From a virus, in the IMG/VR virus record IMGVR_UViG_3300030518_000026, positions 1 to 31,079 of that record: a DNA stretch of 31,079 nt; one strand, 5' to 3'. The notes under the pieces were generated by a model. That model made no database searches. It saw only the letters and a list, made by a program, of their open reading frames with translations, and was not told the origin of the DNA. Every line of letters starts with the position of its first letter. Position 1 is the first letter of the stretch. Position numbers and translations under genes: made by a program. Of this stretch, positions 952-15,364 are shown in pieces.

Positions 952-1028
952 TGGCGGACCCGGCAGGATTTGAACCTGCAACGCGCGAATTAGAATTTCG
1001 GTGCTCTATCCAATTGAGCTACGGGTCC
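952..1028 (-). tRNA. tRNA-Arg (anticodon UCU), CCA encoded
   Basis: Full cloverleaf on the minus strand: 7-bp acceptor stem GGACCCG/CGGGTCC, D arm GCTC/GAGC, anticodon loop ATTCTAA with TCT at 992-994, T arm GCAGG/CCTGC with TTCAAAT loop, discriminator G and a genome-encoded CCA at 952-954. The lowest anticodon-stem pair is C opposite C, the only blemish. It reads AGA, a codon usually rare in GC-rich proteobacteria. It lies 4 nt from a second tRNA and within a leftward operon. Confidence 0.95.
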
Positions 1029-1032
1029 GTGG

Positions 1033-1107
1033 TGGTGCGCCGGGCAGGATTCGAACCTACGGCCAAGCCGTTATGAGCGGCCCGCTCTACCGTTGAGCTA
1101 CCGGCGC
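1033..1107 (-). tRNA. tRNA with CAU anticodon, probably tRNA-Ile2 (AUA-reading)
   Basis: Full cloverleaf: acceptor GCGCCGG/CCGGCGC, D arm GCTC/GAGC, anticodon loop CTCATAA with CAT at 1073-1075, T arm GTAGG/CCTGC with TTCGAAT loop, discriminator A and encoded CCA at 1033-1035. A G1-C72 pair and no run of three G-C pairs in the anticodon stem argue against initiator Met. The anticodon arm and TGGCC variable loop resemble bacterial Ile2 (lysidine-modified CAU, reads AUA) as I recall it from E. coli better than elongator Met. The Ile2 reading is an inference and needs the host tRNAs for comparison. Confidence 0.9.
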
Positions 1108-5019: not shown

Positions 5020-5033
5020 TGACGTAGGATTAT
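5005..5033 (+). promoter_or_regulatory. candidate promoter of the recombinase gene
   Basis: TTGACG (5005-5010), 17-nt spacer, GATTAT (5028-5033): five of six and four of six consensus bases. A start near 5040 would give a very short leader ending in the GGGAGG ribosome site at 5046-5051. Confidence 0.4.
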
Positions 5034-5056
5034 TGAGCCTCGTTAGGGAGGTTCCG

Positions 5057-5728
5057 ATGATTGCATATTTCCGCGTGTCCACTAGTTCTCAGGGCCGTAG
5101 CGGTTTGGGGATTGAAGCCCAACGCGCCGCCGTGGATCGGTTTGCAGAGGCGCAAGGCGCGGAGATTTTCGCGGAGTATGTTGAGGTTGAGACGGGCAAG
5201 GGTTCGGATGCTTTGGACCGCCGCCCGCAACTCGCCGCCGCTCTTGCCCATGCGCGCCGTGCGAAGTGTTCTGTTGTGGTGGCGAAGCTGGATCGGCTTT
5301 CGCGTGATGTGCATTTCATTTCCGGGTTGATGGCGCATCGTGTTCCGTTTGTGGTTGCGGAGTTGGGGCCGGATGCCGATCCGTTCATGCTGCACATTTA
5401 TGCGGCGCTTGCGGAAAAAGAGCGCGCGTTGATTTCGGATCGGACGAAGCAAGCTCTTGCACAACGGCGTGCGCAGGGCGTGTTGCTCGGGAACCGGGCC
5501 AATCTTGCGGACGCTGGCAAGGTGGGTGCGGCGGCGAACCAGAACGCAGCGAGGGCGTTTGCATCCAACGTCATCCCAATTGTGCGGCAAATCGAAGCCA
5601 GTGGCGTGAGTGGGTATCACGGTATTGCGTCGGCTTTGAATGCGCGCGGCGTGAAAAGTTCTCGGGGAGGCGAGTGGCACGCAACAACGGTTCGCAATTT
5701 GATGATCCGTAACTATGGCGCTGTTTGA
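5057..5728 (+). CDS. serine recombinase (resolvase/invertase family), 223 aa
   Basis: The N-terminus [16 protein letters not shown] carries the catalytic serine (S8) in the YxRVST motif; [13 protein letters not shown] and [10 protein letters not shown] supply the conserved active-site Arg region, and [22 protein letters not shown] is the long E helix linking to the DNA-binding part. The C-terminal 80 residues (ending in [11 protein letters not shown]) include a recombinase-like [21 protein letters not shown] segment. The length fits small resolvases or DNA invertases rather than large integrases. The ATG at 5057 has GGGAGG 5 nt upstream, preferred to the 5033 start. Possible roles are integration, dimer resolution or inversion of fibre genes. 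Confidence 0.92.
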
Positions 5729-6759: not shown

Positions 6760-8211
6760 TTGCCTGATTGGTTTGATCGCGGCATGGATTTGATGAAAGA
6801 TACTGGCGTGACGCCTTTGGTTGAAAAACTTATCGAACGGCTTCACGCATTAGACGAGATCGGCGGGCAAGCCGTGATTGCGGAAATGGAAGCCGCAGAA
6901 GAACCCGCATGGATGATTGCGCAGATGCGGGGCCGGGTGGCGCTGATGACGCGCGATTGGGTATCGGCGCACGATCATTTCCATATGGCGGTGCATCTCA
7001 ATCCCGACGATTGGGATTCGTGGATATGTCTCGCGTCGGCTTGCTACGAAATGGGGTTGTTTGAACAATCCATTTTGCACGCGCGGGAAGCCGCTGTGCG
7101 GTATCCCGAGCACGGCAGGGCATGGTTGAAGCTGGGGGCCGCACACGCGCTCCTACAACACCATGCGGAGGCGTTGGCGTGCTTTGAGCGGGCGCTGTTC
7201 TTATCGCCCAACGACGCGGAAACGCATCACAGCATTGGGGCCATGTTCTCGTCTATGGCGCTTCCCGAGTTGGCACTGCGTCATTTCCGCGCCGCGCAAC
7301 AGATTGAGGGCGTTTACGTTCAATCGGCATGTGGTGAAGCCGCTGAATTGCTTCGCATGGGGGAATGGCTTGAAGGGTGGGAGAAATTCGAGGATCGGTT
7401 CCGCCTGCCCGCGTTTGCGTTGCCGTGGTGGTTCACCGGCCAGCCGCCTTATACGGGCGATCTGGACGGCTTGCGCGGCAAGCGAGTGCTATTGTGGGCC
7501 GAACAAGGCTATGGCGATAGCCTGCAATTCTCGCGGTATATCCCGAAAGTTATGGAAGTGGCGTCACACGTCACGATTGAGACGCATCAACCGCTTGAAC
7601 GCCTATTCAAATCGTTTGGTTGCGAAGTGACGGTGCATCGGCGTGACGCGCCTCCTGATGTGGATGTGACGGTATCTCTCATGTCGTTGCCTCGGCTGTT
7701 CGGCACCACGCCAGAGAATTGCCCGCCGCCTTCTGTGTTTGATGTGGAACCTAAACCGCAACGCGCGAAGATTGGCGTGTGTTGGGCGGGTGGTGCGCGG
7801 CCAGATGAGCCTCTTGCGAACGCTATCGACAACCGCCGATCCATCGGACCGGATCGGATCATCCCGGTTATTGAAGCGTTAGGCGCGGGAAATTGGATAT
7901 CGTTGCAGCAAGAAGATTTGCCGAAAGGCGACTGGCAAGATACGGCCAACATCGTTGCAGGGCTTGATCTGGTGATCACAGTAGATACCGCTATGGCTCA
8001 CTTGGCGGCGTCGTTGGGCGTTTCGACGTGGCTTATGTGCCGGTTTGATACGTGCTGGCGCTGGGGCCAATACGCCGAGCATACGGTTTGGTATCCGTCC
8101 ATGCGGATATTCCGGCAACGGTTCCTCGGAGATTGGGGCGGCGTTGTAAAGCAAGTCATCGCGGCAATAGGAGAGCGCCATGCGGCGGCGTCGGCAGGTA
8201 CGGGGATTTGA
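6760..8211 (+). CDS. TPR-containing glycosyltransferase, 483 aa
   Basis: Residues about 55-200 are tetratricopeptide repeats (for example WICLASACYEMGLFEQSILHA, cut here, then AWLKLGAAHALLQHHAEALACFERAL). Residues 240-470 resemble the GT-B/heptosyltransferase-type domain common after TPRs: KRVLLWAEQGYGDSLQF, then IGVCWAGGARPDE around 338-350 and DLVITVDTAMAHLAASLGV at 403-421, the usual sugar-nucleotide site. Such proteins are frequent in phages and may modify host surface sugars or a virion protein. The start is uncertain: TTG at 6760 lacks a ribosome site and ATG at 6784 is an alternative; the frame is open further upstream. The end overlaps the next gene by 32 nt. Confidence 0.8.
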   Translation: MPDWFDRGMDLMKDTGVTPLVEKLIERLHALDEIGGQAVIAEMEAAEEPAWMIAQMRGRVALMTRDWVSAHDHFHMAVHLNPDDWDSWICLASACYEMGLFEQSILHAREAAVRYPEHGRAWLKLGAAHALLQHHAEALACFERALFLSPNDAETHHSIGAMFSSMALPELALRHFRAAQQIEGVYVQSACGEAAELLRMGEWLEGWEKFEDRFRLPAFALPWWFTGQPPYTGDLDGLRGKRVLLWAEQGYGDSLQFSRYIPKVMEVASHVTIETHQPLERLFKSFGCEVTVHRRDAPPDVDVTVSLMSLPRLFGTTPENCPPPSVFDVEPKPQRAKIGVCWAGGARPDEPLANAIDNRRSIGPDRIIPVIEALGAGNWISLQQEDLPKGDWQDTANIVAGLDLVITVDTAMAHLAASLGVSTWLMCRFDTCWRWGQYAEHTVWYPSMRIFRQRFLGDWGGVVKQVIAAIGERHAAASAGTGI

Positions 8212-11937: not shown

Positions 11938-13725
11938 ATGAAAATACCATCGCGAGGCCGCGCCCGCTGGGCATCTGAAATCATCGGGGCTTGCACAGCC
12001 TCGCGCGCCATCCGCGTTCAGCGTGGTTCGGCATATCGCAATCTGTTCCTGACAGGTGATGAAAACGGCGTCCCGCAAACATTTCTGCGCACGCAAGATT
12101 TCATTCGCGACGTGCAAGCGTTCCTTTACTCGCCTTCTGACTTGCGGTTTTCTGTGGACTATTTTGGGCAAGTTTCGCCTGTCGAACGCGCCAAAGGCCA
12201 CGCTGCCGCCGCTGGTTTGTATCAGCACATTTGCGCGGGCGATGTGGACGATGCGATATCAGACGCCGTGCTTTGGTCTTTGATCAAAGGCAAAACGATT
12301 GAGCAGATTGTGTGGTCGCGGGGCGGTTTTGAACCATATCTGGTCCAGCCCGAGAGCTTTGGCGTGTTCAACGAAAGCATCGCTTCTCTGGAACGCCAAG
12401 AAGCATTTGTTCACACCACGTTCCCTACGCGGTCGCGGTTTAAGCAAATCATCTCGGGACTGCCCGAGGCGCGGCAAGAAGCGTTGATGCGCGCAGCCAC
12501 AAACATGCAAACCAAAACCGAGGGCGGTCCTGACAGCAACTCGATGCTGAAACAAATCCTCGTTGGAGGGCTGTATCCCTACACGACGAGCGGCACCAGC
12601 CCGTCAACCAACGCAGGCCGCGTGATGCACCTTTTTGCACCGCAGGCACAGATTGAAACATCTGTGCAGGATCAAATGGTGCCTATGGATGAATTGTGGG
12701 TGTGGAACGACGAGCAAGACGATTGGGCGACTATCACAATGATAGGCGATGAGATCGTGTTTGGCGGCGAAATCCTATTCAACGCTTTTGCGGAACCGAT
12801 GGCAAAACGCGATGCGTATGGCCGCGTGGTGTCAGATGATTCCAACCCGTTGCGCGGCCAGCATGGGTTTACCGAGTTTTGCGCCATGCCGTTGCCCGAT
12901 AACTTTTGGGGCATTTCGTTCATTTCGTTGGTGGCGCTTTTGCAACGTGCGCTCAATGAGCGGATCGACGGTATCAACAAGATGCTCCGCAAGCAGGAAG
13001 ATCCGCCACGGTTCGCGACGGGTTCAACATCCGTCAATCAGAACGCTTATGCGAAGTTGAACAAGCCCGGGGGTTTTTTCACAGACGGATCGCCCAATGC
13101 CAAAATGCAAGACATTGTGTCGCAAATCCCGCCCGATATCTGGCGGTCTTTTCAAGAACTCAACAGCATGTTTGACGTGATCGGCGGCATGCCTGCGATC
13201 ATGCGAGGCGAGGGCGAAGGGTCTGTGCGGTCGCAAGGGCAGTCTGACACGCTTCTCCGCACGGGTTCGGCGCGGCACAAGGATGCGTCTCTGAAAATCG
13301 AACGATCCGTGGAGCGCATCGGCGGGCTTTGCTTCTCCATGCTGCGCGCCAAATGCCCGGATCAACTTATTGCGTGGGTGCCGCCAGGAACGAAAAGCGT
13401 TCAACTCGACACGGAATTAGACCCCACGTTGGAACCGCCCGCGCCGGGAATGCTGCCGGTCACATTCAACTATGCGGACGTATCACCCAAAGCCAAAATC
13501 GAAATCGACAGTCACTCGTCCTCGCCCGCGTTCCGGCACGAAAGCCGAGAACTGGCGTTTGCGCTTGCGAAAGCTGGGGCTATTGACGGCAAGCGGCTTA
13601 TCGAAATGGTGCATCCGCCGATGGAAGATGCTCTTGTAGAGGATTTGGAGCGCAAGGATATCGCGCAACAGGCGCTTATCGCCCAACACCCAGAACTGCT
13701 GACCGGCAAAAAGAGCCACCATTGA
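11938..13725 (+). CDS. portal protein, 595 aa
   Basis: Length, position between terminase and scaffold/capsid, and content fit a phage portal (head-tail connector) that forms the ring through which DNA passes. Typical stretches include an N-terminal helix-rich wing, a strand-turn region with LWVWNDEQDDW, the long helix LVALLQRALNERIDGINKMLRKQEDPPRF (cut here) that resembles the portal stem, and MFDVIGGMPAIMRGEGEGSVRS. The ATG at 11938 is the first after a TAA and has no visible ribosome site, unlike most genes here; the 46-nt gap upstream has no strong feature. The family is assigned by pattern and context, not by a search. Confidence 0.85.
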   Translation: MKIPSRGRARWASEIIGACTASRAIRVQRGSAYRNLFLTGDENGVPQTFLRTQDFIRDVQAFLYSPSDLRFSVDYFGQVSPVERAKGHAAAAGLYQHICAGDVDDAISDAVLWSLIKGKTIEQIVWSRGGFEPYLVQPESFGVFNESIASLERQEAFVHTTFPTRSRFKQIISGLPEARQEALMRAATNMQTKTEGGPDSNSMLKQILVGGLYPYTTSGTSPSTNAGRVMHLFAPQAQIETSVQDQMVPMDELWVWNDEQDDWATITMIGDEIVFGGEILFNAFAEPMAKRDAYGRVVSDDSNPLRGQHGFTEFCAMPLPDNFWGISFISLVALLQRALNERIDGINKMLRKQEDPPRFATGSTSVNQNAYAKLNKPGGFFTDGSPNAKMQDIVSQIPPDIWRSFQELNSMFDVIGGMPAIMRGEGEGSVRSQGQSDTLLRTGSARHKDASLKIERSVERIGGLCFSMLRAKCPDQLIAWVPPGTKSVQLDTELDPTLEPPAPGMLPVTFNYADVSPKAKIEIDSHSSSPAFRHESRELAFALAKAGAIDGKRLIEMVHPPMEDALVEDLERKDIAQQALIAQHPELLTGKKSHH

Positions 13726-13874
13726 TGTTTAAAGTCCATTACACTGCTACCGATGGTCCGTTTGTGACGCACATCGAAGTGGTATGGCATCGGCTATGCC
13801 AAGCGTGGGCATTCGTTCGGTCGTGCCGGGAAATGCCGGGTTATTCCAATGTGCATATTTTGCACATTCCTTAA
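13725..13874 (+). CDS. possible small protein after the portal, 49 aa
   Basis: The ATG at 13725 overlaps the portal stop (TGATG) and opens a 49-residue frame ending in TAA at 13872. It begins MFKVHYTATDGPFVTHIEVV and ends YSNVHILHIP, with a plausible beta-alpha-beta rhythm and a central WAFVRSCREMPG helix. No ribosome site is obvious, so it would need coupling to the portal. It is the last plausible gene before the 1-kb non-coding region. It might be incidental, but the start/stop overlap matches the style of its neighbours. Confidence 0.5.
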   Translation: MFKVHYTATDGPFVTHIEVVWHRLCQAWAFVRSCREMPGYSNVHILHIP

Positions 13875-13914
13875 CATGTTCCCTGTAACCTGTAAGGATT
13901 GCTTACAAGTTGCC

Positions 13915-13941
13915 AAAAAAAACCCGACCACTAGGGCCGGG
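13915..13941 (-). terminator. intrinsic terminator facing left
   Basis: On the minus strand CCCGGCC (13935-13941) pairs with GGTCGGG (13923-13929) around CTAGT, followed by eight T (13915-13922): a textbook rho-independent terminator with one GU pair. On the + strand the stem has an A-C mismatch and no T-run. All neighbouring protein genes point right, so it would stop a leftward transcript before it runs into the portal gene. Confidence 0.8.
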
Positions 13942-14053
13942 CAAGTTTGGGAGGAAACGTCCAAGAATGCCGTGGGTCCAACGCGCGCATCGTCCACGGC
14001 AACGATGACTGACCGGCTCGATTTGATCCGACCGCGCGCCTACCACTTCATTC

Positions 14054-14715
14054 TGCACATAGACGGAAAGGTTGCAAGAGGGTTTCCGTTCGCGTTCTTT
14101 CTTTTCCGTGCGTGATTGCAGAAAGGAACAAAGGCTTTTTGGTGAGGGTTAGGAGGCAGACATACTTTCCCTTGCGAGAAAATATGCCACGCGGCGGCTT
14201 TTTGGAGCCGGGCCTTTCGTTCTGACATCCTCATTTGAGATTTAGGCGGGAAGGGTCACTCGGTTCCCCGCGCGGCACGAAGCCGACTATTTCAGACTTT
14301 GCTCTTGCGAGCATGACGGCACGGCATTGAACGGACCAATGAGGCGATCCGGTTCGCCGCTGGATGTTGTGGTTTAGTCACAGCGCATCCCCAACAGTTT
14401 TACCTTGTCTGTCTAACAAGTCGCTTGGTTAGCGGCGGTTGCGAGGGCGTCACGCCGGATCGGGCCGGTGGCTGTTTCGCAGTAAGATGATGCCGTCCAA
14501 ACAAATCACGGACGGCAGCGACATCGGGGCTTTCACCAAACGGAAAACCTGCATATTATGCAAGCAATGCTGGTGTAACCCATAGAAAAGATTGAGCACT
14601 GGTGGCTCTCTTTCCTGCGATGCCACGGTTGCATCCCGTGAGTATCGCCAGCAGAATAACCCTCCATTTCAAAAACAGTCAAACCATTTCCGCGCAACAT
14701 TTCCGTCTATTTGCA
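14054..14715. repeat. 22-nt inverted repeat pair, 618 nt apart
   Basis: Bases 14054-14075 are complementary to 14694-14715 at 20 of 22 positions: 4 pairs, mismatch (14058/14711), 11 pairs (ATAGACGGAAA with its complement), mismatch (14070/14699), 5 pairs. The arms are too long and too well matched for chance in a 1-kb region. They could be the closing helix of the structured RNA, or terminal inverted repeats of an inserted element. I see no duplicated target site outside them. Confidence 0.8.
14653..14682 (-). promoter_or_regulatory. candidate leftward promoter
   Basis: On the minus strand TTGACT (14677-14682) is followed after 18 nt by TATTCT (14653-14658). Transcription from about 14646 would reach the leftward terminator at 13915-13941 after roughly 720 nt. 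GGAAA-containing repeat copies lie just upstream of the -35. It supports, but does not prove, an antisense transcript. Confidence 0.35.
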
Positions 14716-14830
14716 AGCGAAAACAACAACCTGTTGCGCAATCCTGATAATCTGGTTTAGGTTGCGCGTGTCGTTGCACTTCGCAGCGATCCAGGTGGAA
14801 GGTTTCCCTGGAACTTGAAAGGACATCCAA

Positions 14831-14872
14831 ATGATTCGTTTTCGCAAGGGCCGCAAGCATTCCCGCAAGTGA
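14831..14872 (+). CDS. possible 13-aa very basic peptide
   Basis: ATG at 14831 opens MIRFRKGRKHSRK then TGA; eight of thirteen residues are Arg or Lys, plus His. AAAGGA lies 8 nt upstream (14818-14823). It ends 6 nt before a perfect 10-bp hairpin and 57 nt before the next gene, the geometry of a leader peptide with an attenuator. A tiny DNA/RNA-binding peptide is another option. A chance frame within the structured region cannot be excluded. Confidence 0.3.
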   Translation: MIRFRKGRKHSRK

Positions 14873-14878
14873 ATGCTT

Positions 14879-14908
14879 CTCCCCACGCTCTTAATTGGGC
14901 GTGGGGAG
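14879..14908 (+). terminator. 10-bp perfect hairpin before the capsid-assembly genes
   Basis: CTCCCCACGC (14879-14888) pairs with GCGTGGGGAG (14899-14908) around a 10-nt loop. The following CCTTTCTC is only a weak T-run, so this may be a leaky terminator, an attenuator, an RNase processing site or the 3' end of the structured RNA. Genes downstream must still be expressed. Confidence 0.5.
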
Positions 14909-14929
14909 CCTTTCTCAAAAGGATTTAAC

Positions 14930-15364
14930 ATGGAACCGATGGCTATGCCTCCCGGTGTTCCGGGTGGGGGATTACCGCAGGGGATGCAGGCACCGCCGCA
15001 GGGTGGGATGCCTCCGAGCCTTGGCGCGCCTCCTGCTAATGTTGGTCCGCACACGATTCCGCAGCACAACCCTGGCAACATTTTGCAAGCGATGCAGAAG
15101 TTGGCCGCTGCGAACCAGATGATCAATGACGCGATCCCGCAGGTTCCGATGGGAACGCCGCTTCATACCAAGATTATGAAGATTTCGATGGAACTCACAA
15201 AAGAGTTGGGTTCCGCAACGGAACAGATGAAGCAGCAAATTCCTGCGCTTCTCCAGCAACTTCAAGCGGCGAAGGCACAAGGCCAGATGGGCATGTTGCA
15301 GACAGCCGCGCCTCCCGCGCCTAACTCGCCCCCCGCCATGCCCGCCCCGCAGCAAGCCGCATAA
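14930..15364 (+). CDS. Pro/Gln/Met-rich hypothetical protein, 144 aa
   Basis: ATG at 14930 (MEPMAMPPGVPGGG) has AAAGGA 7 nt upstream; the longer frame from 14873 runs through the hairpin and is not used. The first 45 residues and the last 30 are Pro/Gly/Gln/Met-rich and probably disordered; residues 50-120 are helical (ILQAMQKLAAANQMIND, ELTKELGSATEQMKQQIPALLQQL), a likely coiled coil. It precedes the scaffold-like and capsid genes, so it may take part in head assembly. The family is not recognised. Confidence 0.75.
   Translation: MEPMAMPPGVPGGGLPQGMQAPPQGGMPPSLGAPPANVGPHTIPQHNPGNILQAMQKLAAANQMINDAIPQVPMGTPLHTKIMKISMELTKELGSATEQMKQQIPALLQQLQAAKAQGQMGMLQTAAPPAPNSPPAMPAPQQAA

What the first reader, a model, noticed from the sequence alone, without database searches (positions are those of the whole stretch)
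13885..14912. Large structured RNA candidate inside the virion operon
About 1 kb between the portal and the capsid-assembly genes has no convincing gene in an otherwise gene-packed phage, yet contains at least ten stable stem-loops plus a long-range helix. Seven positions form U-G pairs only on the + strand, which is hard to explain by DNA-level inverted repeats alone. Large phage-associated RNAs such as GOLLD and ROOL are known, as is the phi29 packaging RNA that acts on the portal; I recognise none of their conserved parts here. It may be a new class.
Basis: partly seen in the sequence, partly recalled or inferred. Interest (0 to 1): 0.85.

Follow-up and report, generated by a model that had tools for sequence, protein, structure and literature searches.

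The report
Overlooked micro-gene beside phage cargo slot
The supposed giant RNA is mostly a one-off non-coding insert that no other sequence searched shares, but at its right edge sits a tiny, very positively charged 13-amino-acid gene with its own folded RNA leader, kept by nearly all related phages examined and missing from the two deposited annotations I could check.

Summary
The gap between the portal gene and the next virion gene holds two different things. (1) Left and centre, about 13875-14720: a lineage-specific non-coding insert with no protein gene and no detectable relative except fragments of the same phage. Its folding is marginal on + (z -1.7) and better on - (z -2.9), but coding stretches of this genome reach about -3. 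Its 22-nt long-range inverted repeat is real (0/400 shuffles). In relatives this site is empty or carries unrelated MINUS-strand genes (Thg1, HNH, RTX-like), so it is a cargo slot. The insert ends, on the minus strand, in an MmgR-like sRNA/terminator below the Rfam cut-off. (2) Right edge, 14734-14908: a conserved + strand cassette of promoter-like site, two stem-loops, a 13-codon hyper-basic micro-ORF (MIRFRKGRKHSRK) and a GC hairpin. A 10-18-codon Arg/Lys/His-rich ORF stands at this site in 53 of 58 related loci (0.011 expected per locus). The leader stems covary (21 double-changed cells; 7.7 in shuffles). A large new RNA class is not supported; a small structured leader plus unannotated micro-gene is. 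Best guess for the peptide, inferred only: a J-like DNA-condensing virion peptide.

The parts
11938..13725 (+). Portal gene (left boundary)
   Evidence: tblastn to annotated portal proteins of MW202825/MW202753, 27% identity over 96%
13725..13874 (+). Possible 49-aa ORF whose ATG overlaps the portal stop; doubtful, no homologue
13908..13977 (-). MmgR/suhB (alpha-r8)-like sRNA element with UUUCCUCC segment; below Rfam cut-off
   Evidence: RF00519 full-length, 32.5 bits, cut-off 41, E 1.5e-4; same element in L064, L006, L146-L148
13921..13942 (-). Intrinsic terminator GCCCGGCC-CTAGT-GGTCGGGT-TTTTTTT for leftward transcription
   Evidence: P 0.99 stem in minus-strand fold
13978..14720 (.). Lineage-specific non-coding insert (cargo-slot occupant)
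   Evidence: no codon periodicity, no homologue, slot empty or protein-filled in relatives
14054..14075 (+). Left arm of the 22-nt long-range inverted repeat
14694..14715 (-). Right arm of the long-range inverted repeat
14653..14682 (-). Best leftward promoter-like match TTGACT-18-TATTCT (9/12); not significant on its own
14734..14763 (+). Rightward promoter-like site TTGCGC-18-TAGGTT at the place of the family's TTGAC-18-TA.G.T sites
   Evidence: read from the sequence by position; family promoters enriched, 20/33 at 9+/12 against 2.7% of controls, though this phage's own site is weak
14771..14789 (+). Leader stem-loop 1 (TCGTTGC-ACTTC-GCAGCGA)
   Evidence: covarying helix 1
14790..14812 (+). 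Leader stem-loop 2 (TCCAGG-TGGAAGGTTTC-CCTGGA), loop U...UC
   Evidence: covarying helix 2; motif enriched family-wide
14831..14872 (+). 13-codon hyper-basic micro-ORF MIRFRKGRKHSRK, SD AAAGGA upstream
14879..14908 (+). 12-bp GC hairpin after the micro-ORF, weak U-tract (CCTTTCTC)
   Evidence: similar hairpins in relatives
14930..15364 (+). Next virion gene, 144 aa, scaffold-like by position only
   Evidence: homologues in relatives; no Pfam or PHROG family

Best explanation
The interval is a cargo slot followed by a conserved micro-gene, not one large RNA. SHOWN by comparison: the slot between portal and the next virion gene is empty or filled with unrelated leftward genes in relatives; in this phage it holds about 0.85 kb of non-coding DNA that ends, on the leftward strand, in an MmgR-like UUUCCUCC element and an intrinsic terminator. 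SHOWN: to its right is a rightward cassette kept across the phage family: promoter-like site, structured leader (two covarying stem-loops in the close relatives), ribosome-binding site, a 10-18-codon Arg/Lys/His-rich ORF, and a GC hairpin. INFERRED: the insert is transcribed leftward and its most likely stable product is a small RNA from the MmgR-like 3' end, which could compete with or imitate host alpha-r8 sRNAs. INFERRED: the leader hairpins and downstream hairpin protect a short (about 140 nt) mRNA so that the peptide is made in quantity when heads assemble, and the peptide neutralises and condenses packaged DNA or links it to the capsid interior, as J/VP8 does in microviruses.
For: Cargo slot: gaps of 163-290 bp in seven distinct relatives and 0.5-1.35 kb in others, mostly with minus-strand genes incl. 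Thg1, HNH and RTX-repeat proteins. Insert non-coding and orphan. MmgR-like element, also at the same site in L064. Micro-ORF on site in 53/58 loci against 0.011 expected per locus, down to 37% capsid identity; differences at codon positions 1/2/3 = 23/20/50. Leader: 21 double-changed cells against 7.7+/-2.4 in shuffles, covariation score 0.418 against 0.194, 0/500 (sequence-only alignment agrees); stem-loop motif 28/48 against 1.6%; promoter enrichment. J/VP8 peptides are Arg/Lys-rich and important for DNA packaging (PMC11281519).
Against: No expression data. The MmgR-like element misses the Rfam cut-off and its first stem is poorly formed. The insert's minus strand folds better than all its shuffles and has a significant long-range inverted repeat, so a large RNA is not excluded. 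This phage's own promoter match is weak. The peptide's role rests on charge, position and analogy; J proteins are longer. The wide stem-loop motif was defined after viewing most leaders, and none of the seven loci added afterwards showed it. Many loci are close relatives of one another, so counts are not independent.
Confidence: 0.55

Rival explanations
1. The insert is one large structured RNA (probably leftward, 650-800 nt, closed by the 22-bp long-range helix, 3' end at the 13921 terminator), the first seen member of a new class of phage RNA.
For: Minus strand folds better than 100/100 shuffles of the core; long-range repeat 0/400; hairpins with GCAA tetraloops on the minus strand, e.g. 14159-14188; leftward terminator.
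Against: No second sequence exists to test covariation; other stretches of the genome reach similar z; the only decent leftward promoter match lies inside the right arm, so that transcript would lack half of the closing helix; relatives keep nothing here.
Confidence: 0.13
2. The insert is decayed or neutral filler left by a lost cargo gene; only the terminator is functional, and the inverted repeat is a regulator site (operator pair) or a remnant of a mobile element's ends.
For: Slot turns over between protein genes and emptiness; right arm lies between the rightward -35 and the leftward promoter match; no homologue.
Against: No coding remnant in any frame; no target-site duplication seen flanking the arms (read); structure is slightly above shuffled on the minus strand.
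Confidence: 0.3
3. The micro-ORF is an attenuation leader peptide: ribosome stalling at Arg/Lys codons sets whether the GC hairpin after it terminates transcription into the capsid genes.
For: Short peptide rich in two or three residues followed at once by a hairpin; the phage carries a tRNA-Arg gene.
Against: Hairpins lack strong U-tracts in most relatives; residues are a mixture of R, K, H, G rather than one amino acid; tandem duplicates in several lineages; no antiterminator fold was tested.
Confidence: 0.15
4. The peptide is an arginine-rich RNA-binding regulator of its own leader hairpin, in the manner of lambda N and boxB.
For: Arg-rich peptide next to a hairpin with constrained loop ends and variable, covarying stem.
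Against: No co-variation between peptide and loop was tested; plain DNA binding explains the charge equally well; other copies of the hairpin in these genomes were not looked for beyond the model search.
Confidence: 0.2

Closest known systems
Microvirus J protein / gokushovirus VP8
   Same: Very small Arg/Lys-rich peptide encoded beside the capsid genes of a phage; likely function in DNA packaging (PMC11281519)
   Different: 10-18 aa instead of ~25-40; dsDNA tailed phages; no aromatic capsid-anchoring C-terminus in the peptides listed; presence in virions untested
MmgR / suhB (alpha-r8) sRNA family, RF00519
   Same: UUUCCUCCC segment, ACUU, terminator with U-tract, full model length matched
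   Different: 32.5 bits against cut-off 41; first stem poorly formed; phage-borne and at the end of a longer leftward unit
GOLLD and ROOL RNAs
   Same: Phage-encoded region of similar length with a long-range helix
   Different: No Rfam match; not beside the tRNA genes (952-1107, 13 kb away); no conserved homologues
phi29 packaging RNA
   Same: Lies near a portal gene in a tailed phage
   Different: No Rfam match; neither sequence nor architecture kept in relatives
Amino-acid biosynthesis leader peptides (attenuators)
   Same: Short peptide rich in few residues followed by a hairpin
   Different: Mixed basic residues, weak U-tracts, tandem duplicates, virion operon

Membership tests
MmgR/suhB sRNA RF00519 | Score at or above the curated gathering cut-off (41 bits) | tested here: not met
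   32.5 bits; L006 36.4, L064 29.8; Acidiphilium plasmid L045 50 bits passes
MmgR/suhB sRNA RF00519 | Anti-SD segment UUUCCUCCC between two stems, second stem a terminator | tested here: met
   CGUUUCCUCCC and terminator aligned
MmgR/suhB sRNA RF00519 | First stem-loop (UGCCC-UUCUU-GGGCG) | tested here: inconclusive
   only partial pairing in the alignment
MmgR/suhB sRNA RF00519 | Expressed, Hfq-bound ~77-nt RNA | not testable with these tools
   needs RNA-seq
GOLLD / ROOL | Match to the Rfam covariance models | tested here: not met
   no match at gathering threshold over the window, nor at E<=10 over 13726-14935
GOLLD / ROOL | Covariation-supported ornate secondary structure | tested here: inconclusive
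   no homologue of the insert to test
phi29 packaging RNA | Match to the Rfam model | tested here: not met
Microvirus J / VP8 | Small Arg/Lys-rich peptide encoded near the coat protein gene | tested here: met
Microvirus J / VP8 | Aromatic C-terminus buried in the coat protein; ~25-40 aa | tested here: not met
   10-18 aa, mostly ending RK; VP8 of SpV4 is 38 aa ending in Phe (PMC11281519)
Microvirus J / VP8 | Present in the virion and binds the genome | not testable with these tools
   needs virion proteomics
Transcription attenuator leader | Intrinsic terminator with U-tract after the peptide | tested here: inconclusive
   hairpin present, U-tract weak: CCTTTCTC here, better in L025

The most novel reading that the evidence does not exclude
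A family of tailed phages carries one of the smallest conserved phage genes, a 10-18-residue Arg/Lys peptide made from a short mRNA with a dedicated covarying leader hairpin, acting as a protamine-like head peptide or as an RNA-binding regulator of its own leader.
Probability: 0.45. Interest if true: 0.75.

Novelty: new variant of a known kind. Interest (0 to 1): 0.58.

Why it matters
Genes of 10-18 codons fall below the limits of gene finders, so a conserved phage gene can stay invisible: in the two deposited relatives checked, reverse-strand ORFs are annotated over it. If the peptide is packaged it would be a tailed-phage counterpart of the microvirus J protein, directly testable by virion proteomics. 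The covarying leader hairpin is a small RNA motif without an Rfam entry. The case also shows how a one-off cargo insert can look like a giant RNA until relatives are compared.

Tried and rejected
Protein gene or pseudogene in the insert: ORFs and six read-through frames gave nothing in Pfam, PHROGs or related phages. Homologues of the insert by exact patterns in IMG/VR: TATTTTCTCGCAAGGGAAA hit one unrelated contig by chance; ATAGACGGAAANGTTGC hit 25 other contigs, none with the second inverted copy. Weak Azospirillum, Sinorhizobium and related-phage hits judged short chance matches. Rfam sub-threshold hits c4-a1b1, Cgb105 and Entero_OriR judged chance. Minus-strand ORFs annotated in GenBank over the micro-ORFs judged spurious, because the basic micro-ORF is what relatives share. 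The two-hairpin model R1 found only its 12 training phages. The first alignment misplaced L060, which was dropped. The mean fold energy of 53-nt leaders alone is uninformative (mean z -1.1 on +, -1.3 on -). A genome-wide folding control timed out and was repeated smaller. Host: a capsid search of 84,980 species genomes found only one Geobacteraceae MAG contig, so the host is unsettled; the MmgR-like element hints at Alphaproteobacteria. Literature searches for a comparable tailed-phage peptide found none in the held library, which lacks most subscription papers.

Full report
WHAT IS THERE. The window is a tailed-phage contig. No normal gene lies between them, and 13900-14800 lacks the codon periodicity of its neighbours.

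FOLDING. The 996-nt piece scores z -2.4 on + and -6.1 on - (20 shuffles each). In 120-nt windows the most negative minus-strand values are at the left-end terminator (-4.9) and at 14120-14239 (-4.1). For the core 13905-14720, + gives z -1.7 (8/100 shuffles as good) and - gives z -2.9 (0/100). Elsewhere in the genome 700-nt stretches reach -2.7/-2.6 (inside the terminase gene) and -1.8/-3.0, against -1.5/-3.3 here. The long-range helix is real: 22 nt, two mismatches, 0/400 shuffles. Whether it is an RNA helix or a DNA site is open; its right arm lies between the rightward -35 and the best leftward promoter match.

COMPARATIVE EVIDENCE. Capsid-protein searches brought 27 and then 80 IMG/VR loci; only one MAG contig among 84,980 species genomes has a relative, which suggests virulent phages. 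The portal-to-next-gene gap is 163-290 bp in seven distinct relatives and 0.5-1.35 kb in others. Most long gaps hold minus-strand genes: Thg1 (L017), HNH (L027), RTX-repeat proteins (L002, L009) and unknowns (L008, L015, L022); L020 has a degenerate short repeat instead. The window's insert is thus one occupant of a cargo slot. It has no relative of its own in the collections searched; for IMG/VR this rests on exact patterns only, so diverged copies could be missed.

LEFT END. On the minus strand 13977-13908 aligns end to end with Rfam RF00519 (MmgR/suhB), 32.5 bits against a cut-off of 41. The element occurs, also below the cut-off, in L064 at the same site and in Synechococcus phage MinM2; an exact 18-base core occurs in three further IMG/VR contigs. 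An Acidiphilium plasmid copy passes the cut-off. The alpha-r8 family is Hfq-associated and widely conserved in Alphaproteobacteria (PMC12559287). In MinM2 the element follows a gene on the same strand, so it may simply be a 3' UTR terminator with sRNA potential.

RIGHT END. The same order recurs in the relatives: promoter-like site, short leader, ribosome-binding site, a 10-18-codon ORF made mostly of R, K, H and G, a GC hairpin, then the next gene. With fixed criteria (start codon, SD-like motif, 10-20 codons, at least half R/K/H), 53 of 58 loci have such an ORF on the + strand 0.9-2.0 kb upstream of the capsid match; the off-site frequency predicts 0.011 per locus. Two of the five misses just fail the criteria: L066 lies 2.2 kb upstream, and L075 has a 9-residue ORF. 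MW202753 and MW202825, about 37% identical in capsid protein, each have two in tandem. The loci include near-duplicates, so counts are not independent events. Differences between similar micro-ORFs fall 23/20/50 on codon positions 1/2/3, as expected of a coding sequence.

LEADER STRUCTURE. On 12 relatives the two-helix structure has 74% of cells paired against 60% in shuffles, 21 cells with both sides changed against 7.7 +/- 2.4 (0/500) and a covariation score of 0.418 against 0.194 (0/500). Slid versions have fewer cells paired and lower covariation scores, although the +1 slide comes close in double-changed cells (19). The sequence-only alignment gives nearly the same. The structure was partly chosen from these sequences, which favours it. 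A wider pattern (stem of at least 5, loop of 8-14 starting U and ending UC) is found in 28 of 48 leaders and 1.6% of control windows; it was defined after viewing most of these leaders, and the seven loci added afterwards lacked it, so its reach is the closer part of the family. Pairs that switch between U-A and U-G or G-C and G-U point to the + strand. Promoter-like sites are also enriched (20/33 at 9+/12 against 2.7%), but this phage's own site is weak.

INTERPRETATION. Shown: a cargo slot; a lineage-specific non-coding insert; a covarying small leader; a conserved micro-gene. Inferred: leftward transcription of the insert, sRNA function, and the role of the peptide. I favour a J-like DNA-neutralising head peptide because charge is conserved more than sequence, the gene stands at the start of the capsid block with its own promoter-like site and hairpins on both sides, and it is duplicated in several lineages. 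J/VP8 peptides are Arg/Lys-rich and important for packaging (PMC11281519). Attenuation and RNA-binding rivals remain open, and a large leftward RNA is not excluded.

NOVELTY. Rfam has no entry for the leader, and paper searches found no description of such a peptide in tailed phages. The library is incomplete, and large small-ORF surveys may hold it without comment, so novelty is likely but not proven.

Noticed in passing
L017:3221-4027 (minus): A Thg1-family (tRNA-His guanylyltransferase) gene in the cargo slot of a related phage, Pfam PF04446 E 7.8e-29.
   Followed up: partly
L146, L147, L148, L006:2980-3070, L064:4478-4565: MmgR/alpha-r8-like UUUCCUCC elements with terminators recur in several phage contigs; phage-borne mimics or 3' UTR sRNAs of host regulators.
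   Followed up: partly
L020:5290-5480 and L002:1580-1645: Degenerate short repeats (TGCC/CGCC-type units) right after the portal gene.
   Followed up: no
window 14736-14767: Palindrome GCGCAATCCTGA...TTAGGTTGCGC lying over the rightward promoter-like site, possibly an operator.
   Followed up: no
L017, L021, L027, L087, L107, L117, L005, L119: Two micro-ORFs in tandem, in L021 and L027 with overlapping GTG/TGA start and stop.
   Followed up: partly
L005:7779-8039 and L119:2871-3169: GenBank records MW202825 and MW202753 annotate minus-strand ORFs over the micro-ORFs.
   Followed up: yes
window 5033-5725 and 6760-8211: A serine-recombinase-type resolvase gene, and a TPR protein with a weak glycosyltransferase-9 match.
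   Followed up: no
window 952-1107 (minus): tRNA-Arg(UCU) and tRNA-Met genes.
   Followed up: no
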